64,000 nucleotides of DNA from Rhodopirellula islandica. GTDB lineage: Bacteria; Planctomycetota; Planctomycetia; Pirellulales; Pirellulaceae. The stretch lies in the NCBI RefSeq assembly GCF_001027925.1, contig NZ_LECT01000054.1:62001-126000 (forward strand). Reading direction: 5' to 3'. The position numbers were made by a program, and so were the translations under genes. Positions 49,834-60,912 of the stretch are shown piece after piece; positions within the stretch are counted from its first letter, which is position 1, and each line of letters starts with the position of its first letter. The notes under the pieces were generated by a model. That model saw only the letters and a list, made by a program, of their open reading frames with translations, was not told where the DNA came from and did not search any database.

Positions 49834-51612
49834 GTGAAGAAGTTGTTCTATTCGTTCGCGATTGCACTGACCGCAATGGCTTACGGCACGACCGCCAACG
49901 CTCAATGTTGTGGCGCCCCTGTTCCTGCTCCCGCCTGTGGTGGTTGTGGTGCCGTCGTTTCAGCATCGCCTGCGGAAGGTGCTCCTGCTGCTGACGCTGC
50001 AGTTGCTCACGCCGCGGTTGCCGAAGGTTGTGGTCCTGCCATGACGACTCAAACCATCATGGTGCCTCAACAGGTTACCGAAAAACAGATGGTCACCGTG
50101 ACGGAGATGCGGCAAGAAACGCGTCAACGCAACTACACCGTTGTGAAATCAGTGCCTCGCACTGAAACTCGCACTCGGATGGTGACCAAGCAAGTTCCTC
50201 GCCAAGTCGTGAAGACTGAGAACTACACCGTCATGGTCCCATCGACCAAGACCGAAGAATACAGCGTTCAAGTTCCTGTCACGAATGAAGTCGAACAGAC
50301 TTACACCGTGATGGTTCCGAAGACGAGCACCGTGGAAGAAACCTACACGGTTCAAGTTCCTGTCACGACCGAAGTCGAAGTGCCTTACTCGGTTCAGGTT
50401 CCTTACACCGAAACCGCGACTCGCACTTACACCGTCAACGTTCCTTACACCGAAATGGTCGAAAAGAACTACTCGGTTTGCGTTCCTGTGACGGAAAACG
50501 TCGAGCGTACCTACACCGTTCGCGTCCCAACCACCGAGCAAGTTGCACAAACCTACACCGTTCGCGTGCCTTACACCGAAACGGTTGAGCAAACCTACAC
50601 CGTTCAAGTTCCTTACACGGAAACCTTGACCGCTTCGCGTACCGTTTGCAAACGCGTTCCTGTCACCAAGACCCGCACTGTCTGCAAAGACATGGGTAGC
50701 TTCCAGTGTGTGACCGAAGAAGTTCCTGCCGGCAACGGTTGTGGATCGAGCTGTGGTGGATGCGGATCGTGCGGCGGATGCTCCGACGCATGCGGATGTG
50801 GCAGCAGCTGTGGCGGATGCACTCAAACGATCACCAAACGCGTTTGGGTTCCTAACTTGGTCAGCGAAGAAGTTCCTTACACCGAGTACGTCAGCGAACG
50901 TTCGGAAGAGCCTTACACGTACACCGTGAACAAGTGCCGCACCGAAACTCGCACCCGTCCTGTGACGGTTTGCAAGTACCGCAACGAAACAAAGACCCGC
51001 ATGGTCAACGTCACCAAATGCCACTTGGAAACCCGTACTCGTATGGTTCCAGTGACTCGCATGACACGTGAAGTTCGCACTCGTCAGATCCCTGTTCGTC
51101 GTTGCCGTCAAGAACAACGGACGCAAGAGTACCAAGTCACCAAGTGCCGCACCGAACAACGTGTTCGCAAAGAGCAACGCACCAGCTACACCAGCGAAAC
51201 TCGTACACGTTCGAAAGAAGTGTGCACGATGGTTGCCGAAACTCGCACTCGCATGGTTCCTCAAACGACCATGACAACGGAAGCTCGGACTCGTGAAGTC
51301 ACCGTCATGGTTCCTGAAGCCAAGACCCGTGAGTACACCGTCACCGAGTGTGACACCGTCACCGAAGAAGTCCCTTACACCGTCACCGTGATGGACCAAG
51401 TCAACGAAGAAAAGACCGAAGACTACACCGTTTGCGTGCCAGTCCAAGTTGAAAAAGAAGTCGAAGTCACCAAGACGATCATGGTTCCTCAAACGGTTGA
51501 AGTCCCCGTTTCGAGCGGATGTGGATCGGCTGCCGGAAACGGCGGAGCTGGTTGTGGCGGATGCAGCGGATGCGGTTCGGCCGCACCAGTTGCATCGGGC
51601 TGTGGCTGCTGA
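49834..51612 (+). CDS. YTV-repeat cell-wall protein
   Basis: The 592-residue product starts at GTG with gagg 8 bases upstream and has a signal peptide (LFYSFAIALTAMAYGTTANA). From about residue 95 to 275 it repeats a unit of about 15-22 residues, such as TYTVQVPYTETVEQ, matching the YTV domain known from Rhodopirellula-type planctomycetes. A Cys/Gly cluster (about 300-330, CGSSCGGCGSCGGC) interrupts it. The later half repeats a basic variant (CRTETRTRPVTVCKYRNE, TRMVPVTRMTREVRTR). It ends in another Cys/Gly-rich tail. YTV proteins are linked to the proteinaceous, disulfide-rich wall of these bacteria, so a structural wall role is likely. Codon use looks restricted, which suits a highly expressed gene. 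A terminator follows. Confidence 0.9.
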   Translation: MKKLFYSFAIALTAMAYGTTANAQCCGAPVPAPACGGCGAVVSASPAEGAPAADAAVAHAAVAEGCGPAMTTQTIMVPQQVTEKQMVTVTEMRQETRQRNYTVVKSVPRTETRTRMVTKQVPRQVVKTENYTVMVPSTKTEEYSVQVPVTNEVEQTYTVMVPKTSTVEETYTVQVPVTTEVEVPYSVQVPYTETATRTYTVNVPYTEMVEKNYSVCVPVTENVERTYTVRVPTTEQVAQTYTVRVPYTETVEQTYTVQVPYTETLTASRTVCKRVPVTKTRTVCKDMGSFQCVTEEVPAGNGCGSSCGGCGSCGGCSDACGCGSSCGGCTQTITKRVWVPNLVSEEVPYTEYVSERSEEPYTYTVNKCRTETRTRPVTVCKYRNETKTRMVNVTKCHLETRTRMVPVTRMTREVRTRQIPVRRCRQEQRTQEYQVTKCRTEQRVRKEQRTSYTSETRTRSKEVCTMVAETRTRMVPQTTMTTEARTREVTVMVPEAKTREYTVTECDTVTEEVPYTVTVMDQVNEEKTEDYTVCVPVQVEKEVEVTKTIMVPQTVEVPVSSGCGSAAGNGGAGCGGCSGCGSAAPVASGCGC

Positions 51613-52002: not shown

Positions 52003-52037
52003 ATGAACCGAACTGGACATCGCAAAGGATGAATCGC

Positions 52038-52952
52038 ATGAAGATCACATTGGTTGGCACAGGACGGGTTGGGTCCGCGATTGCATTTGGATTGACGATC
52101 AATCCTCTGGCCAGCGAATTGTTGCTGCTCAATCGTTCACGCGAGAAGGCCCAAGGGGACGCGATGGATTTGACGCACGCCGCGGCGCTCGTCAACAGCA
52201 ACATGAAAATCTGGGCGGGGGAAATCGCAGATTCGAAAGATTCCGATGTGATCGTGTTCACCGCCTCGGTTCCATTTCGGTATCCCGGTCAAACACGTTT
52301 GCAAATGGGCCAGGACAACATGCCCATCCTTCGGGAATGGATGCCGGCGCTCGCCAAGGCGAGCCCCAACGCGATCATTGTGATGGTCAGCAACCCGGTC
52401 GACGCCTTGGCCTACGAAACCATCCGGTTGACAGGGTTCGATTCCACTCGCGTCATCGGCACAGGAACGTTGGTGGACAGCATTCGATATCGAGCGTTGT
52501 TGTCGACCGAATTGCAAATCCACGCCGAAGACATCCGTGCGTACATATTGGGCGAGCACGGTGATTCACAATTTGCCGCATCATCCATCGCGATGACAGG
52601 TGGCGAACGGTTCTACCCCAGCGACACGTCCCGGCGAATGTTCGAAGAAACCAAAGCGATGGGATACGAGGTGTTTCGTCTGAAAGGACACACCTCGTAC
52701 GGGATCGCCATGGCGACGATCACCATCCTGGACAGCATTGTTTATGACCTGCGACACACCCTGCCGGTCAGTGTGTTGGTCAATGGATACTTGGGCGTGA
52801 AAGACGTTTGCCTGTCTTTGCCGGCAGTCATCGGACGCCAGGGAATCACTCGCGTGTTGCGTCCAACTTTGTCCGACGATGAACAGGCGGCGTTCCGCCA
52901 TTCGGCCGAGGTCGTCAAGCAAACGTTGGCGGAAATGGAAAGCGGTTGCTAA
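52038..52952 (+). CDS. Malate/lactate dehydrogenase family protein
   Basis: The 304-residue product is an NAD-dependent 2-hydroxyacid dehydrogenase of the LDH/MDH family. It has the Rossmann motif ITLVGTGRVGSAIAFGL, DAMDLTHAAAL, IVMVSNPVDALAYETIRLTG, the active-site region YILGEHGDSQFAASS (His of GEHGDS) and GTGTLVDSIRYRALLS. The specificity loop reads SVPFRYPGQTRLQ. The residue aligning with position 102 (Gln in LDH, Arg in MDH) appears to be Arg, favouring malate, but the loop has one extra residue. I chose ATG 52038 (GGA 8 bases upstream, family N-terminus) over the ATG 9 bases earlier. It stands alone, preceded by a palindromic element. Confidence 0.87.
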   Translation: MKITLVGTGRVGSAIAFGLTINPLASELLLLNRSREKAQGDAMDLTHAAALVNSNMKIWAGEIADSKDSDVIVFTASVPFRYPGQTRLQMGQDNMPILREWMPALAKASPNAIIVMVSNPVDALAYETIRLTGFDSTRVIGTGTLVDSIRYRALLSTELQIHAEDIRAYILGEHGDSQFAASSIAMTGGERFYPSDTSRRMFEETKAMGYEVFRLKGHTSYGIAMATITILDSIVYDLRHTLPVSVLVNGYLGVKDVCLSLPAVIGRQGITRVLRPTLSDDEQAAFRHSAEVVKQTLAEMESGC

Positions 52953-53689: not shown

Positions 53690-54760
53690 TCATTGAGCTT
53701 GCGAGCGAGAACCAGTGGGACCGCCCGTGATCGCTCGGTCAGACGGCAAAGGCCGCGCCGCGGTTGCGAAGCCGCGTCGGTACAAGTGTTCTTTCAACGT
53801 TCGAAACGCGGCGAAACTCTCGGGGTAAACCCAGACCGTGATGGTCGTTTTGGATGGGTCTCGCCCTGCCAGTTCGACGTCGAGCAATCGGCTGGATGTG
53901 AGGACTTGATCAATCGGCTGCCCGTGTGGTTCTTCGAGTGGTTCGATGACCATGCCTGCCAGTTGAACCCGGGTGCCCATCGAAGTCTTGCCACCCTGGG
54001 TGACTCGCCCGGAGGATTTGTCCATCGCGTAGTGCGCGACGTACCCGCGAATGGGGCCGACGGCGGACGAGGAACGTCCGTCTCGTGAACCACGGATGAC
54101 ACGGCCAAAGTCTTCTTTGATGGCTTTGAGCAGCGGTTCGATCGGAACGACAGAGACTCGGTCGTTCTTCAGTCGCAAATGGATCTCATCGCCGAAGACG
54201 GTTTTGGCCATGGGGGTCGGGAGGTGTTCCACCGCGACCACGGGCGACTCTTGGTTTTCGAGCCGTTCCTTGGTGCCGGCCAATGCCGCCAGGCTGGAGC
54301 TGACCTCTCGCATTTCGCGACCGAGTTTGGCTGCCTTGACCTTGGTTTGGTCAAGTTGCTTTTGCTTTTCAGCCCAGGCTTCTTCGGCCAAGGTCAACAG
54401 GTCCAGCAGGGCACCACGTTCACGTTTGGTTTGTTCCAATTCCGCGTCATAGCGCTTGACCATGTTCTCCAGACGCATGGATTCGCGTTGTGCCGACGCG
54501 GCTCGCATGGCCACTTGCGCCAGTTGTGAAAGCTGCGCATCGCTTGCCAGCTTGGGTTGCGGCGGAAGCGGTTCCTCGGGCGAAACCAGCTCACCAGGTT
54601 TTTGAGCGATTTCGTCGGGCGACGTCAACGCACGGGTGATCCGTTGTGTCTGGGTTCCCAGCACCACCACCAGGATGATCAGAATCCCAACGAGGTTGGC
54701 AACAATGTCCAAGAAGGCATCGTGACCGAGTTCCAATGTCGTGCGTCTGCGTCGACTCAT
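53690..54760 (-). CDS. ExbD/TolR-like subunit with pore Asp
   Basis: The 356-residue product has a basic N-terminus (MSRRRRTT) and one membrane helix starting at Asp18 (HDAFLDIVANLVGILIILVVV). This matches the ExbD/TolR/MotB pattern, in which one Asp at the start of the helix carries protons. A coiled-coil of about 100 residues (about 75-165) follows, then a folded periplasmic domain (about 175-340; GDEIHLRLKNDRVSVVPIEPLL, ITVWVYPESFAAF). ExbD has only about 140 residues, so the periplasmic part is greatly enlarged. It is the last of three overlapping genes, ATGA overlap with the preceding one. Function unknown beyond a stator-like role. Confidence 0.75.
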   Translation of the reverse strand: MSRRRRTTLELGHDAFLDIVANLVGILIILVVVLGTQTQRITRALTSPDEIAQKPGELVSPEEPLPPQPKLASDAQLSQLAQVAMRAASAQRESMRLENMVKRYDAELEQTKRERGALLDLLTLAEEAWAEKQKQLDQTKVKAAKLGREMREVSSSLAALAGTKERLENQESPVVAVEHLPTPMAKTVFGDEIHLRLKNDRVSVVPIEPLLKAIKEDFGRVIRGSRDGRSSSAVGPIRGYVAHYAMDKSSGRVTQGGKTSMGTRVQLAGMVIEPLEEPHGQPIDQVLTSSRLLDVELAGRDPSKTTITVWVYPESFAAFRTLKEHLYRRGFATAARPLPSDRAITGGPTGSRSQAQ

Positions 54761-56859
54761 CGAACCCTCCGCGTGATTTCAACGCCGCTGTCGTGCATCA
54801 ACGTTTGCAATTCATGGAAACGTTGATCGGCATGGGGCGCAACCAAGACATCCAGTCGAGGTTGCCAACGGCCTCCGGGGAGCGTGGCTCCCCAACCGTC
54901 CACTCGGTCGCGGACGGCGGTCGCTAACTTCAGCGTCGCGTTGTAGACCGAATCATTTTCGAATGGGAACGTGGCGACAACCGTGTTGTTTTGAACGAGT
55001 TCGTATCGATCGTGGTAGCAGACCATCGCGATTGGACGGACGACTTGAGTTCCATTGATCCCAGCCATCGAACGCGGCAGTGCCCAGTCTTTGCCTTCAC
55101 GGCGAACCGTGTTGGATGCCTGCTGCTGGGACTGCATGTTGACACTCGGCGGTGCTTGATTCGACGAATCGGGAGCTTGGTTCGAGGATGGGGGCGAAGC
55201 CGACGACTGCGAAACGGACGCAGAGGCGGATTGACCACCGCTTGCTTGTTGCATCCCCGCAATTTGTTCGCCGTTGACGGGCGAGCTGGAACCACGGAAA
55301 TCAGGATCGCTTTCGTCCGCATTGGACTCGCCATCCGAGCCATCGGCGGATGGATCGCTCATGGAGCCTGCCGCGCCGGACGGAGGGAGGCTGGAATTGC
55401 CTGGGGCATCGTCCAGCAGTGGATTGTCCTTTTGAGCCAAGTAGTCATTCAGGGCATCGGACCGGGAATTGACGGCACCGAAGCTGGATTGGCTGGATCC
55501 AGGAATCGGCTCTGCCAAACCGCCCGCGGGCAACGGAGGCCCCGCATCACGAGGTGCCAAGAATCCATTCGCTCTGGCTTGCCGGTCAAGGGATCGCGCC
55601 GACAAGGTGGGCAGCGGTTTGCGAGTCTGTTGCTTCGACGTGCCACTTGGATCGCCGAGTTGTGAGGTGGCTCCAGCGGCCTGCCCACTGAACGTGTTGT
55701 CCGTGACGTTGCCGCGGAAGGGAGCGGAACCGGTGCTTGGTTTGGCACTGTAAGTGTCTGCGTTTGCAAATTCCCCACCGGACGATGGTTGCGAAGCACC
55801 GCCAAGCATCGAGCCGCCACTCAAACTGCCGCGGCCGGTTCCGTTGCCACCGTCACCGCGTCCACTGCCGGAACCGCCGATGTATTGATGGAGGTTGCGA
55901 TTGGCGGCTTCATGGACAGCCAGTTCAATCTTGGGCTTCAAGACACGGTCCGCTTTGGGGAACGCCAAATCAACCTCGGCGGGTACCAATTCGTAACCGT
56001 ATTGGTCATCCCAGTCCTTCATCGCGGCTCGGGCGGCAACGAACGTTTCAATCCCATCCGGGCGAACGATCAACAAAGGGTAGGGCGGAACGGAATCACC
56101 ATAGTTTTGCATCGCGTGCTGACGCACCACTCGAAGCGCGGCATCCAACGGATTGCTACGCGGTGATCCCGATTGAACTCCCGCCAACAATTGCGTGTAG
56201 GTGATCCGTGTGTCCTCGGGCCAAATCGTGATCCCGTGTTCGTCGCATTCGGCGTAGACGGGGCGTCGAGCAGTGCCATTGGGACCGCGGTGAGGCACAA
56301 TGACAACGCGCGGTTTGTCGCCGGATTTGACTTGTTCCAGTTCTTCGATTTCGCGACGCAACGCTTCCATCTCTTCACGCATCATCACGATGGCTTGCTC
56401 GTCGACTTCGATTGCCTCGTCGGGAGTGACGGCGGCCTCGACTTCCTGGCTGAGTTGTTTCAAACGTTCACGCAGTTTTTGCGTTGCCGTTTGAATCTGC
56501 GTCAACTCATCGCGACGTCGTTCCACGTTGCCCGTTTGCTTTTCACGGTGAGCGACCAATTGGTCGACGCGAAATTGTTCTTCTTCAAGCAGTTGGTCGG
56601 CGGAAGCCGCTGTCATGGCCGGTCGAGCGTCTGCGTCTGTCTGCGAGTCCGCACCGCTCCCGTTCGACGAATCTTCATCGACTGGTTCATCGAGCGCCGG
56701 TGCGACCGATCCCGCCTGCTGAGCAACTTGTGGGACCGAGGTGTCCTGAGCTTTTTCGGCCACCAGGGCCAACAACAGGATCAAGGTACCCAGCGTGCAG
56801 ACCAGCACCGCAAGGAACGGGAACAACGAGGGAGACAGCGAGGCGCGTCGCCGACTCAT
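54757..56859 (-). CDS. Large ExbD-like subunit lacking the pore Asp
   Basis: The 700-residue product has the same basic start (MSRRRASL) and one N-terminal helix (LFPFLAVLVCTLGTLILLLAL, residues 12-32). No acidic residue lies in or at the start of that helix, unlike its neighbour. A coiled coil follows (about 85-175), then a domain with HRGPNGTARRPVYAECDEHG and YPLLIVRPDGIETFVAARAA. After this comes a long Gly/Ser/Pro-rich linker (about 345-570), and a second copy of a similar fold ends in RWQPRLDVLVAPHADQRFHE. It overlaps both neighbours by 4 bases (ATGA). No named family is recognised. Partnership with the MotA/TolQ/ExbB protein is inferred from operon and topology. Confidence 0.72.
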   Translation of the reverse strand: MSRRRASLSPSLFPFLAVLVCTLGTLILLLALVAEKAQDTSVPQVAQQAGSVAPALDEPVDEDSSNGSGADSQTDADARPAMTAASADQLLEEEQFRVDQLVAHREKQTGNVERRRDELTQIQTATQKLRERLKQLSQEVEAAVTPDEAIEVDEQAIVMMREEMEALRREIEELEQVKSGDKPRVVIVPHRGPNGTARRPVYAECDEHGITIWPEDTRITYTQLLAGVQSGSPRSNPLDAALRVVRQHAMQNYGDSVPPYPLLIVRPDGIETFVAARAAMKDWDDQYGYELVPAEVDLAFPKADRVLKPKIELAVHEAANRNLHQYIGGSGSGRGDGGNGTGRGSLSGGSMLGGASQPSSGGEFANADTYSAKPSTGSAPFRGNVTDNTFSGQAAGATSQLGDPSGTSKQQTRKPLPTLSARSLDRQARANGFLAPRDAGPPLPAGGLAEPIPGSSQSSFGAVNSRSDALNDYLAQKDNPLLDDAPGNSSLPPSGAAGSMSDPSADGSDGESNADESDPDFRGSSSPVNGEQIAGMQQASGGQSASASVSQSSASPPSSNQAPDSSNQAPPSVNMQSQQQASNTVRREGKDWALPRSMAGINGTQVVRPIAMVCYHDRYELVQNNTVVATFPFENDSVYNATLKLATAVRDRVDGWGATLPGGRWQPRLDVLVAPHADQRFHELQTLMHDSGVEITRRVR

Positions 56860-58355
56860 GCCGCACGCCTGTTGTTGGTGGAATCGTCACGGCCGCTAGG
56901 AACCTTCGCGGCGGGCAAACGTTGTGACAACGAATCAACGGCGCGAGCCAAGGTTCGCATCGCGTCCCCCATCACCGGATCCAATTCCACGACGGGTGCG
57001 TCGAGGTTGGTTTGCAGGCTTTGTTGGGCGGCCAACGCAGTCATCGCTTCGGTGTGGGTCATCAATGTGCGTCGATGCGTTTGGACTTCCACCGCGGTGG
57101 TATGCATCGCGTCGTTCCAGGCCTTGGTTTGATCCTGCAACGTCTGGCTGACGCCGTTTCCGATCGTGTCCAAGCGGGAGACGGTGGCTTCGATTCGATC
57201 CGCGTGGCTGGTCAGTGCGGGTTGCAGGGAGGCCTGCATCAATTTGCGGAATTGCTCGGAGCCTTCGTTGTGCTGCGTTCGCCAGGAGGCTTGGGCCTCT
57301 TCGATTGTCTCTCGCCACAGTTTGGCTTGCGTTGCCAGCGACTCCTGCACGGCGACGCGAATGCCGTCGCACAACTGGGTGACCAAGGCGGTTTGGCTGT
57401 CGCCCGCATCGTCACTGGGCAATGCTTCCGAAACCAAGTCACGAACGCGTTGGTCGACGTCCGCCAGCAAGGTTTGTTGGGAGCGTTCGACGGGGAACTG
57501 CAAGAAGATTGCCAGCACCGACAACACCAGACCCAAGGCGGTGGTATCGAAGGCAACATACAGTCCGCTTTTCAATCGATCCACGGCGGCGGTGCCGTCG
57601 GTGAAGTCCAAACCGCCGAGGGTTTGGGTGATCCCGATGACCGTCCCCAAAAATCCCAGCATCGGAATGGCCCAGACGATGATCCGGATCAGGCCGTAGG
57701 AATCGTGAGCGGCATCCGCGTCGCGTTCGGACAGCTCTCGCAAATCTTGCGGCAGATCGCCGGTCCCGCTGCGATGGGATTGGCGTCCCAGCACTTCGTT
57801 GAGACGGCGAACCAGCAGCGAGTTTCGTGTTGCAGACGGAAGCGAACGCAACGATTTGCGCCAGACACGAGCGATCGCCCCAGCGTCATTTTCTTGCAAC
57901 CATCGTTGTGCGGGGGAGGTCGACGCGGCACTCGTCGAGTGTGCCAGCAGGTCTTCATCACGCAACAATTCCAATTGGTGCCGATCCCGAGCGATCTGCA
58001 CGGCGCGAACCGCGAGAATCGCGACGGCGACGCAGAACAGGATTGCCGCAGCGACCGCCACGGGGTGTCCGAGGAAGTAGCGATTCAGCGGCGCCCAATT
58101 GGCACCGAACACGACGCCGTAGAACGCCGCGGAAAGGGCCAAGCCCAATCCAATCGGACCGACGGCGGTGACGACTTTGGAAAACATCGAAGGCGAATCG
58201 ACCAGGTTCACTGACTCCGTCGTCGAAGACGTCGCAGCAGTGTTTTTGCCGGCAGCCTGCCCGACGCCCTGCAATTCCGTCGGAGGCTCCACCGGTTCTC
58301 CCCAGTGATCCGCGGGAGAAAGCGTGTCGTGGACGTTGAAATCGTGAGGCTTCAT
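56856..58355 (-). CDS. MotA/TolQ/ExbB proton-channel family protein
   Basis: The 499-residue product has helices at about 63-83, 98-119, 222-243 and 270-290. The third and fourth carry the family core: WAIPMLGFLGTVIGITQTLGG and VAFDTTALGLVLSVLAIFLQF with conserved Thr and Gly. A cytoplasmic region of about 100 residues separates helices 2 and 3. A C-terminal tail of about 210 residues is helical and coiled-coil-like (QASWRTQHNEGSEQFRKLMQ, TVSRLDTIGNGVSQTLQD), far longer than in ExbB (about 240 in total). It is the first gene of a three-gene unit with ATGA overlaps. It should form a proton-driven complex with the two ExbD-like proteins; what it drives is unknown. Confidence 0.9.
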   Translation of the reverse strand: MKPHDFNVHDTLSPADHWGEPVEPPTELQGVGQAAGKNTAATSSTTESVNLVDSPSMFSKVVTAVGPIGLGLALSAAFYGVVFGANWAPLNRYFLGHPVAVAAAILFCVAVAILAVRAVQIARDRHQLELLRDEDLLAHSTSAASTSPAQRWLQENDAGAIARVWRKSLRSLPSATRNSLLVRRLNEVLGRQSHRSGTGDLPQDLRELSERDADAAHDSYGLIRIIVWAIPMLGFLGTVIGITQTLGGLDFTDGTAAVDRLKSGLYVAFDTTALGLVLSVLAIFLQFPVERSQQTLLADVDQRVRDLVSEALPSDDAGDSQTALVTQLCDGIRVAVQESLATQAKLWRETIEEAQASWRTQHNEGSEQFRKLMQASLQPALTSHADRIEATVSRLDTIGNGVSQTLQDQTKAWNDAMHTTAVEVQTHRRTLMTHTEAMTALAAQQSLQTNLDAPVVELDPVMGDAMRTLARAVDSLSQRLPAAKVPSGRDDSTNNRRAA

Positions 58356-59274: not shown

Positions 59275-60912
59275 ATGGCCTCTTATTTGTCTCTCGAAGA
59301 CGCCGCCAAACAACTCGGAATTCCCGCCGACAAACTGATTGATCTTCGCAGCCAAGGTCAGGTCCGGGGCTTTCGCGATGGTTCCAGCTGGAAGTTCCCC
59401 GAGGCAGAGATCGAGCGTCTGAAGGACGAACTACCCAATATGTCCGGACTGGGATCCGGGATCTTGGCGGTTGACGGTGGCGGATCCAAGATTGGATCTG
59501 TGATCGGTGGCGACAACTCGGCCAGCGACGACAGTGGGTTGGATCTGGACATCGATTCCCTTGCGGGCGGCAGCGACGTCAACCTGATCGCCGGTGATTC
59601 GGGTGACGGCAGCGACGTGACCATCGTGCCTGGTGGAAAAGCTGATAGCGACGCGCCATTGAAGATCGATCTGGATGATCTGAATCTTTCCGGTTCGGCC
59701 CTGTCGCACGACAGTGGGGAAATCGACTTGGAATCCGCAACCCCCGGGCCTCAAGCTGACAGTGATAGCGACGAGTTCAACCTTGGGAGTTCTTTGGAAC
59801 TGAACAGCGATTCGGATGACCTGTCGTTGGAACCTGTCAAAGGAACCACCCCCGGTGCCCCAGCCAAAAGTCAGTCCGATTTGTCGGGGATCGGCGGAGA
59901 AGACAGCGACGGGGAACTGGACCTCGGTGACATCGGCTCGGATGAACAGGCCAGCAGCCTTGAATTGATGGGCGATCTCGATTTGGACAGCAGCCCGTCT
60001 GCCATCGAATCAAAAAGCCACGCCGGCAGTGACGTCTTGAGTGAATTGGATTTGTTGGCCGGCGATGCTGGCGGAAGCGGTTTGCTATCGGGCAGCGGCG
60101 ATTTGCTGGGCAGCTCGCTGATGTCGGTGGAATCAGGCGGTTCGTCCGGCGTCGATGACGCGTTGGCTGATGACGACGATCTGATCATCGCGGATGACGA
60201 CGACGACTTGGTGGTCAGCGGTGCAGGCAGCGACATTTCCATCGCCGGCGACAGTGGCATCAACTTGATGAGCCCTTCCGACAGTGGTTTGTCACTGGAA
60301 AGTGAGCCCTTGGATCTGGCTGGCAGCAGCATTTCCGCGTTGGATTTGGGTGCCGAGCTGAATGAAGGCTCCGGAACAGGCAGCGGTCGCAGTGGAAGTG
60401 GCTTGGTTCCCGCCAGCGAAATGGGATCGGGGATCGATTTCAAAGGCGACGACGAATTCCAATTGTCGGCCTCGGGCATGCAGCTCGATGGCAACGAGGA
60501 GAGTGCTTCGCAAGTGATCGAAGTGGTCGACTCTGGAGCGGTCGACATTGAAGAAGTGGATTTCGACGCTGCCGATCAGGTCGACGCTTTCGGCGATGCT
60601 GGCGACAGCGGTTTCGCAATGGACGATGACGTCGCGGAAGTCGACGCGTTGGGCGACCCGATGGACGCCGACGACGGCTTGATTGACGAAAACGCAACCG
60701 TCGCAGCAGCGGGTGCAGGCATGCGGGGCGGATACGAAGTCCCGTTCACCTTGCTTCAAACCGTTGGACTGCTGCTGATCCTCAGCGTGATGAGCTTGGG
60801 CGGCATGTTGATGACCGACTTGGTTCGCAACATGTGGAGCTACGCGGAGCCCTCGGCTCCTGTCAGCGCACTGACCGACATGCTGATCAGCGTGGCCGGT
60901 TGGGGGCAGTGA
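59275..60912 (+). CDS. HTH (excisionase-like) domain protein with acidic low-complexity region and C-terminal membrane anchor
   Basis: The 545-residue product opens with an excisionase/MerR-like helix-turn-helix (YLSLEDAAKQLGIPADKLIDL, then GQVRGFRDGSSWKFPEAEIERL, residues 4-50). About 430 residues of Asp/Ser/Gly-rich low complexity follow, with repeating GSDxSLxLD-like units. Near the C-terminus are one or two membrane helices (VPFTLLQTVGLLLILSVMSL, about 485-515). The HTH domain of this type often binds DNA or acts as a sensor module, and tethering it to the membrane through an acidic linker is unusual. No known pathway partner lies nearby. The ATG is the first of the conserved domain. Function unknown. 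Confidence 0.72.
   Translation: MASYLSLEDAAKQLGIPADKLIDLRSQGQVRGFRDGSSWKFPEAEIERLKDELPNMSGLGSGILAVDGGGSKIGSVIGGDNSASDDSGLDLDIDSLAGGSDVNLIAGDSGDGSDVTIVPGGKADSDAPLKIDLDDLNLSGSALSHDSGEIDLESATPGPQADSDSDEFNLGSSLELNSDSDDLSLEPVKGTTPGAPAKSQSDLSGIGGEDSDGELDLGDIGSDEQASSLELMGDLDLDSSPSAIESKSHAGSDVLSELDLLAGDAGGSGLLSGSGDLLGSSLMSVESGGSSGVDDALADDDDLIIADDDDDLVVSGAGSDISIAGDSGINLMSPSDSGLSLESEPLDLAGSSISALDLGAELNEGSGTGSGRSGSGLVPASEMGSGIDFKGDDEFQLSASGMQLDGNEESASQVIEVVDSGAVDIEEVDFDAADQVDAFGDAGDSGFAMDDDVAEVDALGDPMDADDGLIDENATVAAAGAGMRGGYEVPFTLLQTVGLLLILSVMSLGGMLMTDLVRNMWSYAEPSAPVSALTDMLISVAGWGQ

What the first reader, a model, noticed from the sequence alone, without database searches (positions are those of the whole stretch)
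53690..58355. Stator-like operon with two unequal ExbD-like subunits, only one with the proton-carrying Asp
Three genes overlap by ATGA: a MotA/TolQ/ExbB-type channel with a long helical C-terminal tail, then 700- and 356-residue proteins that both start MSRRR and have one N-terminal helix. The 356-residue one has Asp18 at the helix start (AFLDIVANLV), as in ExbD. The 700-residue one has no acidic residue there (LFPFLAVLVC). Known ExbB/ExbD, TolQ/TolR and MotA/MotB complexes hold two B subunits in the pore. A heterodimer with one active and one silent Asp would be a different, asymmetric motor, with very large periplasmic parts of unknown target. No OmpA-type peptidoglycan motif or TonB box is visible.
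Basis: partly seen in the sequence, partly recalled or inferred. Interest (0 to 1): 0.72.

Follow-up and report, generated by a model that had tools for sequence, protein, structure and literature searches.

The report
Bacterial motor with one silent half-axle
A three-gene unit of planctomycete bacteria looks like an ion-driven cell-envelope motor whose two-part axle carries the ion-binding acid on only one half; where a different ring protein has replaced the usual one, the missing acid has nearly always come back, which suggests that both unlike halves sit together inside the ring.

Summary
In detail: 58355-53690 (-) encodes a MotA/TolQ/ExbB-type ring protein A (499 aa), B1 (700 aa) and B2 (356 aa), joined by ATGA overlaps. 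B2 keeps its helix Asp. B1 has Ala, Ser or Thr at the aligned site in 73 of 73 operons assigned the ordinary ring (ring seen in 72).

(1) Ring swap: a second ring clade (TM3 GTVxHFG, TM4 AFNTT) has replaced A in several lineages; 20 of 21 such operons have an acid at that B1 site (19 Asp, 1 Glu). The rings form one clade; their B1/B2 do not (AU p 7e-10). (2) Motor loss: 17 of 17 genomes of family f111 keep B2's periplasmic part but lack an A orthologue and the DSFLD motif. (3) B1 and B2 stalk lengths co-vary after correction for descent (r 0.59; five controls -0.14 to 0.07).

Best reading: a 5:1:1 member of the 5:2 motor superfamily, B2 the ion carrier, B1 the silent half bearing a long flexible arm. 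Stoichiometry, ion flow, rotation and cargo are inferred, not shown. The periplasmic domains have no significant PDB match. A new variant of a known kind.

The parts
56856..58355 (-). gene A: ring protein of the MotA/TolQ/ExbB family, 499 aa, long C-terminal tail ending in the nearly invariant RAA
57627..57647 (-). A TM3 motif GTVIGIT (residues 237-243; Thr238 invariant in 31 of 31 of A2); becomes GTVxHFG in the second ring type
57540..57554 (-). A TM4 motif AFDTT (268-272; Asp270); becomes AFNTT in the second ring type; a non-acidic residue in ordinary ExbB/TolQ-type proteins of the same genome
54757..56859 (-). gene B1: axle subunit without the pore acid, 700 aa
56809..56811 (-). B1 Ala17, the site that aligns with the carrier Asp
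56323..56610 (-). B1 coiled-coil stalk, residues 84-179 (helices 84-144 and 154-179)
55867..56310 (-). B1 alpha/beta domain D1, residues 184-331
55126..55851 (-). B1 linker predicted disordered, residues 337-578
   Evidence: pLDDT mostly under 50
54760..55107 (-). B1 alpha/beta domain D2, residues 585-700
53690..54760 (-). gene B2: axle subunit with the pore Asp, 356 aa
54707..54709 (-). B2 Asp18, invariant in 57 of 57 sequences of A3
54254..54541 (-). B2 stalk helix, residues 74-169
53723..54193 (-). B2 alpha/beta domain, residues 190-346, followed by a conserved GSxSxAQ end

Best explanation
The operon encodes an inner-membrane motor of the 5:2 superfamily in which the two axle helices are products of two different genes. 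Five copies of A form the ring. One B2 and one B1 helix stand in the pore; their matched coiled-coil stalks run side by side into the periplasm and carry alpha/beta heads. Only B2 carries the ion-binding Asp; B1 is the silent half of the axle, and its roughly 240-residue flexible arm with a second head (D2) is the likely output that reaches the cell wall or outer membrane. Under the published rotary model, in which two Asp and five ring subunits give ten ion transits per turn, an axle with one Asp would give five. Shown by sequence: gene order, the acid pattern, the ring swaps, the motor loss, the stalk co-variation. Inferred: heterodimer, 5:1:1 stoichiometry, ion flow, rotation, the arm as output. 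The cargo is not known.
For: A has the superfamily domain and the TM3/TM4 threonines. B2 Asp kept in 41 of 41 operons and 57 of 57 rows of A3. B1 non-acidic in 73 of 73 operons assigned the ordinary ring, ring seen in 72 of them. Second ring type: 20 of 21 operons have an acid at B1-17; motif GTVxHFG seen in 21 of 21 top-scoring genomes of a 396-genome search. The second rings are one clade, SH-aLRT 99, 17 rows; the 21 operons that go with it are not one clade by B1+B2 with the helix columns left out, AU p 6.6e-10; five independent switches on starred branches, same direction in 4 or 5 of 5, opposite in 0. Family f111: B2 in 17 of 17 genomes, no A orthologue (best ring score 97 bits or less against 215 bits or more in operon-bearing genomes of the same call), no DSFLD motif. 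Stalk lengths of B1 and B2: independent contrasts r 0.59, 60 same sign, 19 opposite, 21 zero. B1 and B2 profiles align over helix and stalk, 97-99%. Published 5:2 structures show the two Asp in unlike environments, one at the Thr ring and one at the cavity (passages of PMC12215075; PMC12905483).
Against: No complex was modelled or measured. L231 (second ring, B1 Ser) breaks the rule; L222 and L327 have both ring types with B1 Ala and were left out of the 20/21 and 73 counts, as were L330 (no ring found, B1 Asp) and four f111 loci. Asp270 of the ring is not strictly tied to a silent B1: two paralogous operons (L201, L206) have ring Asn and B1 Ser. The sign test on five pairs gives only p 0.0625. 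B1/B2 similarity rests largely on helix and coiled coil; D1 against the B2 head was not detected, and neither matches ExbD by profile. Stalk covariance of the coiled-coil part alone is weak, r 0.18; most comes from the segment between helix and coil.
Confidence: 0.62

Rival explanations
1. ExbB/ExbD/TonB-like division of labour: a B2 homodimer fills the pore, and B1 is a TonB/TolA-like arm that binds the outside of the ring.
For: B1 lacks the acid and has the TonB/TolA layout: one helix, long disordered linker, folded end. PVC-group vWA transducers of that layout are described beside tolQ and a pair of tolR-like genes (section 8 of PMC12204202).
Against: No SHLS-type His: 2 of 132 B1 helices have any His in the core. 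An acid returns at exactly the pore-aligned site when the ring changes, which an outside helix would not need. Stalk lengths of B1 and B2 co-vary.
Confidence: 0.15
2. Not an ion motor: the periplasmic B1/B2 pair does the work, for instance as a wall or envelope scaffold, and the ring is an anchor or sensor.
For: Family f111 keeps B1 and B2 periplasmic parts without the ring. In eight loci the old in-operon A persists after losing its TM3 Thr and TM4 DTT.
Against: Where a ring is present, the carrier Asp and the ring threonines are invariant or nearly so, and the decayed A always has a second, intact ring in the same genome in the loci looked at.
Confidence: 0.13
3. A Zorya-like anti-phage motor.
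For: The best PADLOC hits of A are ZorA2 models (E 3.3e-10), tail included.
Against: No OmpA-type domain in B1 or B2; NCBIfam ZorA scores are far under their cut-offs (28.5 against 700); present in 60 of 60 near relatives, unlike patchy defence islands; no conserved effector neighbour.
Confidence: 0.03

Closest known systems
TolQR / ExbBD (5:2 motors)
   Same: Ring fold with TM3 and TM4 threonines; axle subunit with one N-terminal helix and an Asp at its start; periplasmic domains
   Different: Two unlike axle subunits, one without the acid; 96-residue stalks; periplasmic domains not recognised as ExbD/TolR by Pfam, profile comparison or Foldseek
AglRQS gliding motor of Myxococcus xanthus
   Same: One ring gene and two unlike ExbD/TolR-like genes; whether these form hetero- or homodimers is said to be unknown (passages of PMC9389320)
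   Different: AglQ and AglS are both described as having the conserved Asp; both are ExbD/TolR by Pfam (passages of PMC3169522)
PVC-group tolQ + two heterologous tolR + vWA transducer clusters (PMC12204202, section 8 read)
   Same: A pair of unlike B genes with a ring gene in planctomycetes
   Different: Extra vWA and TPR genes; loss of Asp in one partner is not mentioned in that section; three ExbD pairs of the window's own genome keep Asp in both
ZorAB
   Same: Ring protein with long cytoplasmic tail
   Different: ZorB homodimer with a peptidoglycan-binding domain (abstract and passages of PMC11890865); none here
GldLM
   Same: Long periplasmic shaft on the axle subunits (passage of PMC9389320)
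   Different: GldM is one gene; not compared by sequence here

Membership tests
5:2 ion-driven motor superfamily | ring subunit with MotA_ExbB domain | tested here: met
   7.6e-14
5:2 ion-driven motor superfamily | polar Thr in TM3 and TM4 of the ring | tested here: met
   Thr238 and Thr272 invariant in 31 of 31 rows; same sites as Thr in ordinary ExbB/TolQ-type proteins of the genome
5:2 ion-driven motor superfamily | axle subunit with single helix and Asp at its start | tested here: met
   B2. B1: not met for the Asp
5:2 ion-driven motor superfamily | 5:2 stoichiometry, ion flow, rotation | not testable with these tools
   no complex prediction or experiment
ExbD/TolR (PF02472) | family profile match of B1 or B2 | tested here: not met
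   (eight other loci of the genome match, not this one); hhalign probabilities 0.5
ExbD/TolR (PF02472) | ExbD/TolR fold of the periplasmic domain | tested here: inconclusive
   Foldseek: no PDB match at E 0.001 or below for either model; TolR 5by4 is rank 29 for B1, E 0.39, TMt 0.45
MotB/ZorB | OmpA-type peptidoglycan-binding domain | tested here: not met
TonB/TolA transducer (for B1) | SHLS motif with His in the helix | tested here: not met
   2 of 132 B1 helices have a His in the core
AglRQS | Asp in both B subunits | tested here: not met
   window B1 Ala17; met only in second-ring operons
vWA transducers of PVC bacteria | vWA domain | tested here: not met
   no vWA hit
Zorya | ZorA above curated cut-off | tested here: not met
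   28.5 bits against 700

The most novel reading that the evidence does not exclude
The ordinary ring and the one-acid axle form a single-carrier motor with five ion transits per turn, half the published value of ten; the ring's own TM4 acid (Asp270 in each of five subunits) replaces part of what the second axle acid does elsewhere. The second ring (Asn270, TM3 HFG) needs two axle acids, so lineages that took it up re-evolved the acid in B1. Nature has thus repeatedly switched one machine between a one-carrier and a two-carrier form.
Probability: 0.25. Interest if true: 0.9.

Novelty: new variant of a known kind. Interest (0 to 1): 0.77.

Why it matters
Structures of 5:2 motors show the two axle Asp in unlike positions, but because the axle is a homodimer the roles of the two cannot be separated by simple mutation. 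Here the two sites are on two genes, and ring swaps have already run the experiment: change the ring, and the second acid comes back. That makes it directly testable whether one carrier suffices, how many ions a turn costs, and which ring residues decide. It also gives an unstudied trans-envelope machine for planctomycetes, found in 201 of 248 genomes of the class sample by its B2.

Tried and rejected
Zorya membership: best defence hit, far below cut-offs. ExbD membership of B1/B2 by Pfam and profile: not detected; a first home-made ExbD alignment was spoiled by one wrongly oriented sequence and was replaced. Fold search in the PDB: nothing significant. PDB sequence search: ribosomal S6 at E 0.2 for D2, coiled coils for B2; not followed. 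Function from neighbours: apart from a divergent HTH-like protein near 24 of 72 loci, no widely shared neighbour (crude clustering of ORFs). Function from essentiality: the Planctopirus limnophila essential-gene paper has none of six motor terms in its main text (PMC10632474); its supplements could not be opened. The Rhodopirellula baltica array paper reports another exbB/exbD (RB12053, RB12055) induced by salt (one passage, PMC2754498); I could not link it to this operon. Simple reading that the both-acid operons are an old separate lineage: rejected by the tree. Ring Asp270 as the sole partner of B1's acid: weakened by L201 and L206.

Literature for a one-acid pair: (one paper), 14, 32, 37, 82, 83, 87, 94, 95 searched; I found no description in the listings and passages seen. 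The library is open-access PMC only.

Full report
Observation. A is a MotA/TolQ/ExbB protein. B1 and B2 match no curated family above cut-off. Taxon names: the window is a Rhodopirellula relative (B2 90% identical to R. europaea, L108); other groups are unnamed handles, called here by their codes. I take f111 to be Gemmataceae-like and f21 Planctomycetales-like, but this was not checked.

Spread. B2 was found in 60 of 60 genomes (own plus 59 relatives), 201 of 248 of the class sample and 39 of 294 of a phylum sample, where strong whole-length hits lie within the class. The order A-B1-B2 recurs in most loci scanned. A second, shorter paralogous set exists (L200-L206: A about 560 aa, B1 about 270 aa, B2 about 375 aa) with the same pattern, Ser in B1 and Asp in B2.

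Anatomy. AlphaFold2 with 57 and 61 sequences: B2 = helix 13-45, one helix 74-169, alpha/beta head 190-346 (mean pLDDT 84). B1 = helix 13-49, stalk helices 84-144 and 154-179, head D1 184-331, disordered 337-578, head D2 585-700 (mean pLDDT 69, the folded parts mostly above 90). The stalks are both 96 residues in the window. Heads have no significant PDB match. Profile comparison joins B1 and B2 over helix and stalk; coiled coils can inflate such scores. D1 and D2 resemble each other weakly (P 5e-4).

The acid pattern and the ring. In 101 operons (window included), 73 are assigned the ordinary ring: B1 site Ala 64, Ser 7, Thr 2; ring seen in the same locus in 72, Thr238 and Thr272 in 72 of 72, TM3 G[IL]x and TM4 Asp270 in 70, Asn270 in 2. 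Six of the 73 are of the paralogous set. A set of 80 named loci, which overlaps with these genomes in part, gives Ala in 72 and Asp in 1 of the 73 B1 that could be read; the one with Asp, L168, has the second ring.

Second ring. B1 acid in L068, L072, L076 and L168 went with a ring of a different kind, TM3 GTVxHFG and TM4 AFNTT. A profile of five such rings against 396 genomes of the order gave 21 genomes at 350 bits or more, the rest listed at 245 or less. All 21 show GTVxHFG; 20 show AFN, the other (G572) has a stop in the frame. Of the 21 operons assigned the second ring alone (20 from these genomes plus L168), 19 have Asp, one Glu (G572), one Ser (G529, L231). G725 (L327) and G360 (L222) have both rings and keep Ala. 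In six genomes of genus g405, in L168 and in L317 the old in-operon A is still there but has lost the TM3 Thr and the TM4 DTT. This reads as a series: second ring gained, old ring decays, old ring lost, with the acid appearing in B1 on the way. The order is inferred.

Tree. With the helix columns left out, the operon tree of 101 rows needs 9 changes of ring type and 8 of the B1 acid; five independent ring switches lie on starred branches, and the acid goes the same way in 4 or 5 of them, never the other way, p 0.0625. Holding the 21 second-ring operons together is rejected, AU p 6.6e-10, while the second rings are one clade, 99 (17 rows, motif columns left out). Fisher's test on rows, 20/1 against 0/72, gives 2e-19 but ignores descent.

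Motor loss. In family f111, 17 of 17 genomes have the B2 periplasmic part, best ring scores of 57-97 bits against 215-411 for operon-bearing genomes in the same call (G164, G359, G378 and G076 there have no operon or a distant one), and no DSFLD motif in 17 of 17. Two relatives read ESYLG and ESYRG where others have DSFLD. Three (L265, L266, L271) have a Glu early in the hydrophobic stretch at a place I could not align, and L280 an Asp just before it. In the four loci with wider flanks no A lies near.

Stalks. From helix end to end of coil, B1 and B2 lengths co-vary: raw Spearman 0.84, independent contrasts r 0.59, 60 same and 19 opposite of 100. The segment before the coil gives 0.69, the coil alone 0.18. 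Five controls gave 0.00, -0.03, 0.07, 0.03 and -0.14 (the last p 0.025).

Reading. An acid that returns at the pore-aligned site of B1 when the ring changes, the loss of B2's motif when the ring goes, and matched stalks are what a B1:B2 axle inside A predicts. Ordinary motors have the two Asp in unlike places, one at the Thr ring and one at the cavity (passages), and the rotary model has ten ions per turn (passage); one acid would make five. The ring's own Asp270, absent from ordinary ExbB/TolQ-type proteins of this genome (one of the eight, L335, was misread and should be ignored), may stand in for the second acid, but L201 and L206 show that it is not required. Three other ExbD pairs of this genome keep Asp in both partners.

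What is not shown: the complex, its stoichiometry, ion flow, motion and target.

Noticed in passing
window 59275-60912 (+): Divergent gene upstream with an HTH-like N-terminus and a long Asp/Ser-rich region; a relative lies near the operon in 24 of 72 loci.
   Followed up: partly
window 49834-51612 (+): 592-aa protein of short repeats (YTVxVPxTE) with Cys/Gly-rich ends; a 499-aa ORF lies antisense to it.
   Followed up: no
window 52029-52952 (+): Lactate/malate dehydrogenase-like gene just downstream of the operon on the other strand (by eye).
   Followed up: no
L200-L206: Shorter paralogous A-B1-B2 set in some genomes, same silent/active pattern; found in phylum members outside the class too (G255, G277).
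   Followed up: partly
L321-L326, L168, L317: Old in-operon ring gene kept although its ion-path residues are gone, beside or together with an intact second ring.
   Followed up: partly
L101, L103, L106: Distant phylum hits with Asp in both B1-like and B2-like helices, perhaps related two-acid pairs.
   Followed up: no
A C-terminus (window 56856-56870) and B2 C-terminus (53690-53715): Nearly invariant ends, RAA in A and GSxSxAQ in B2, purpose unknown.
   Followed up: no
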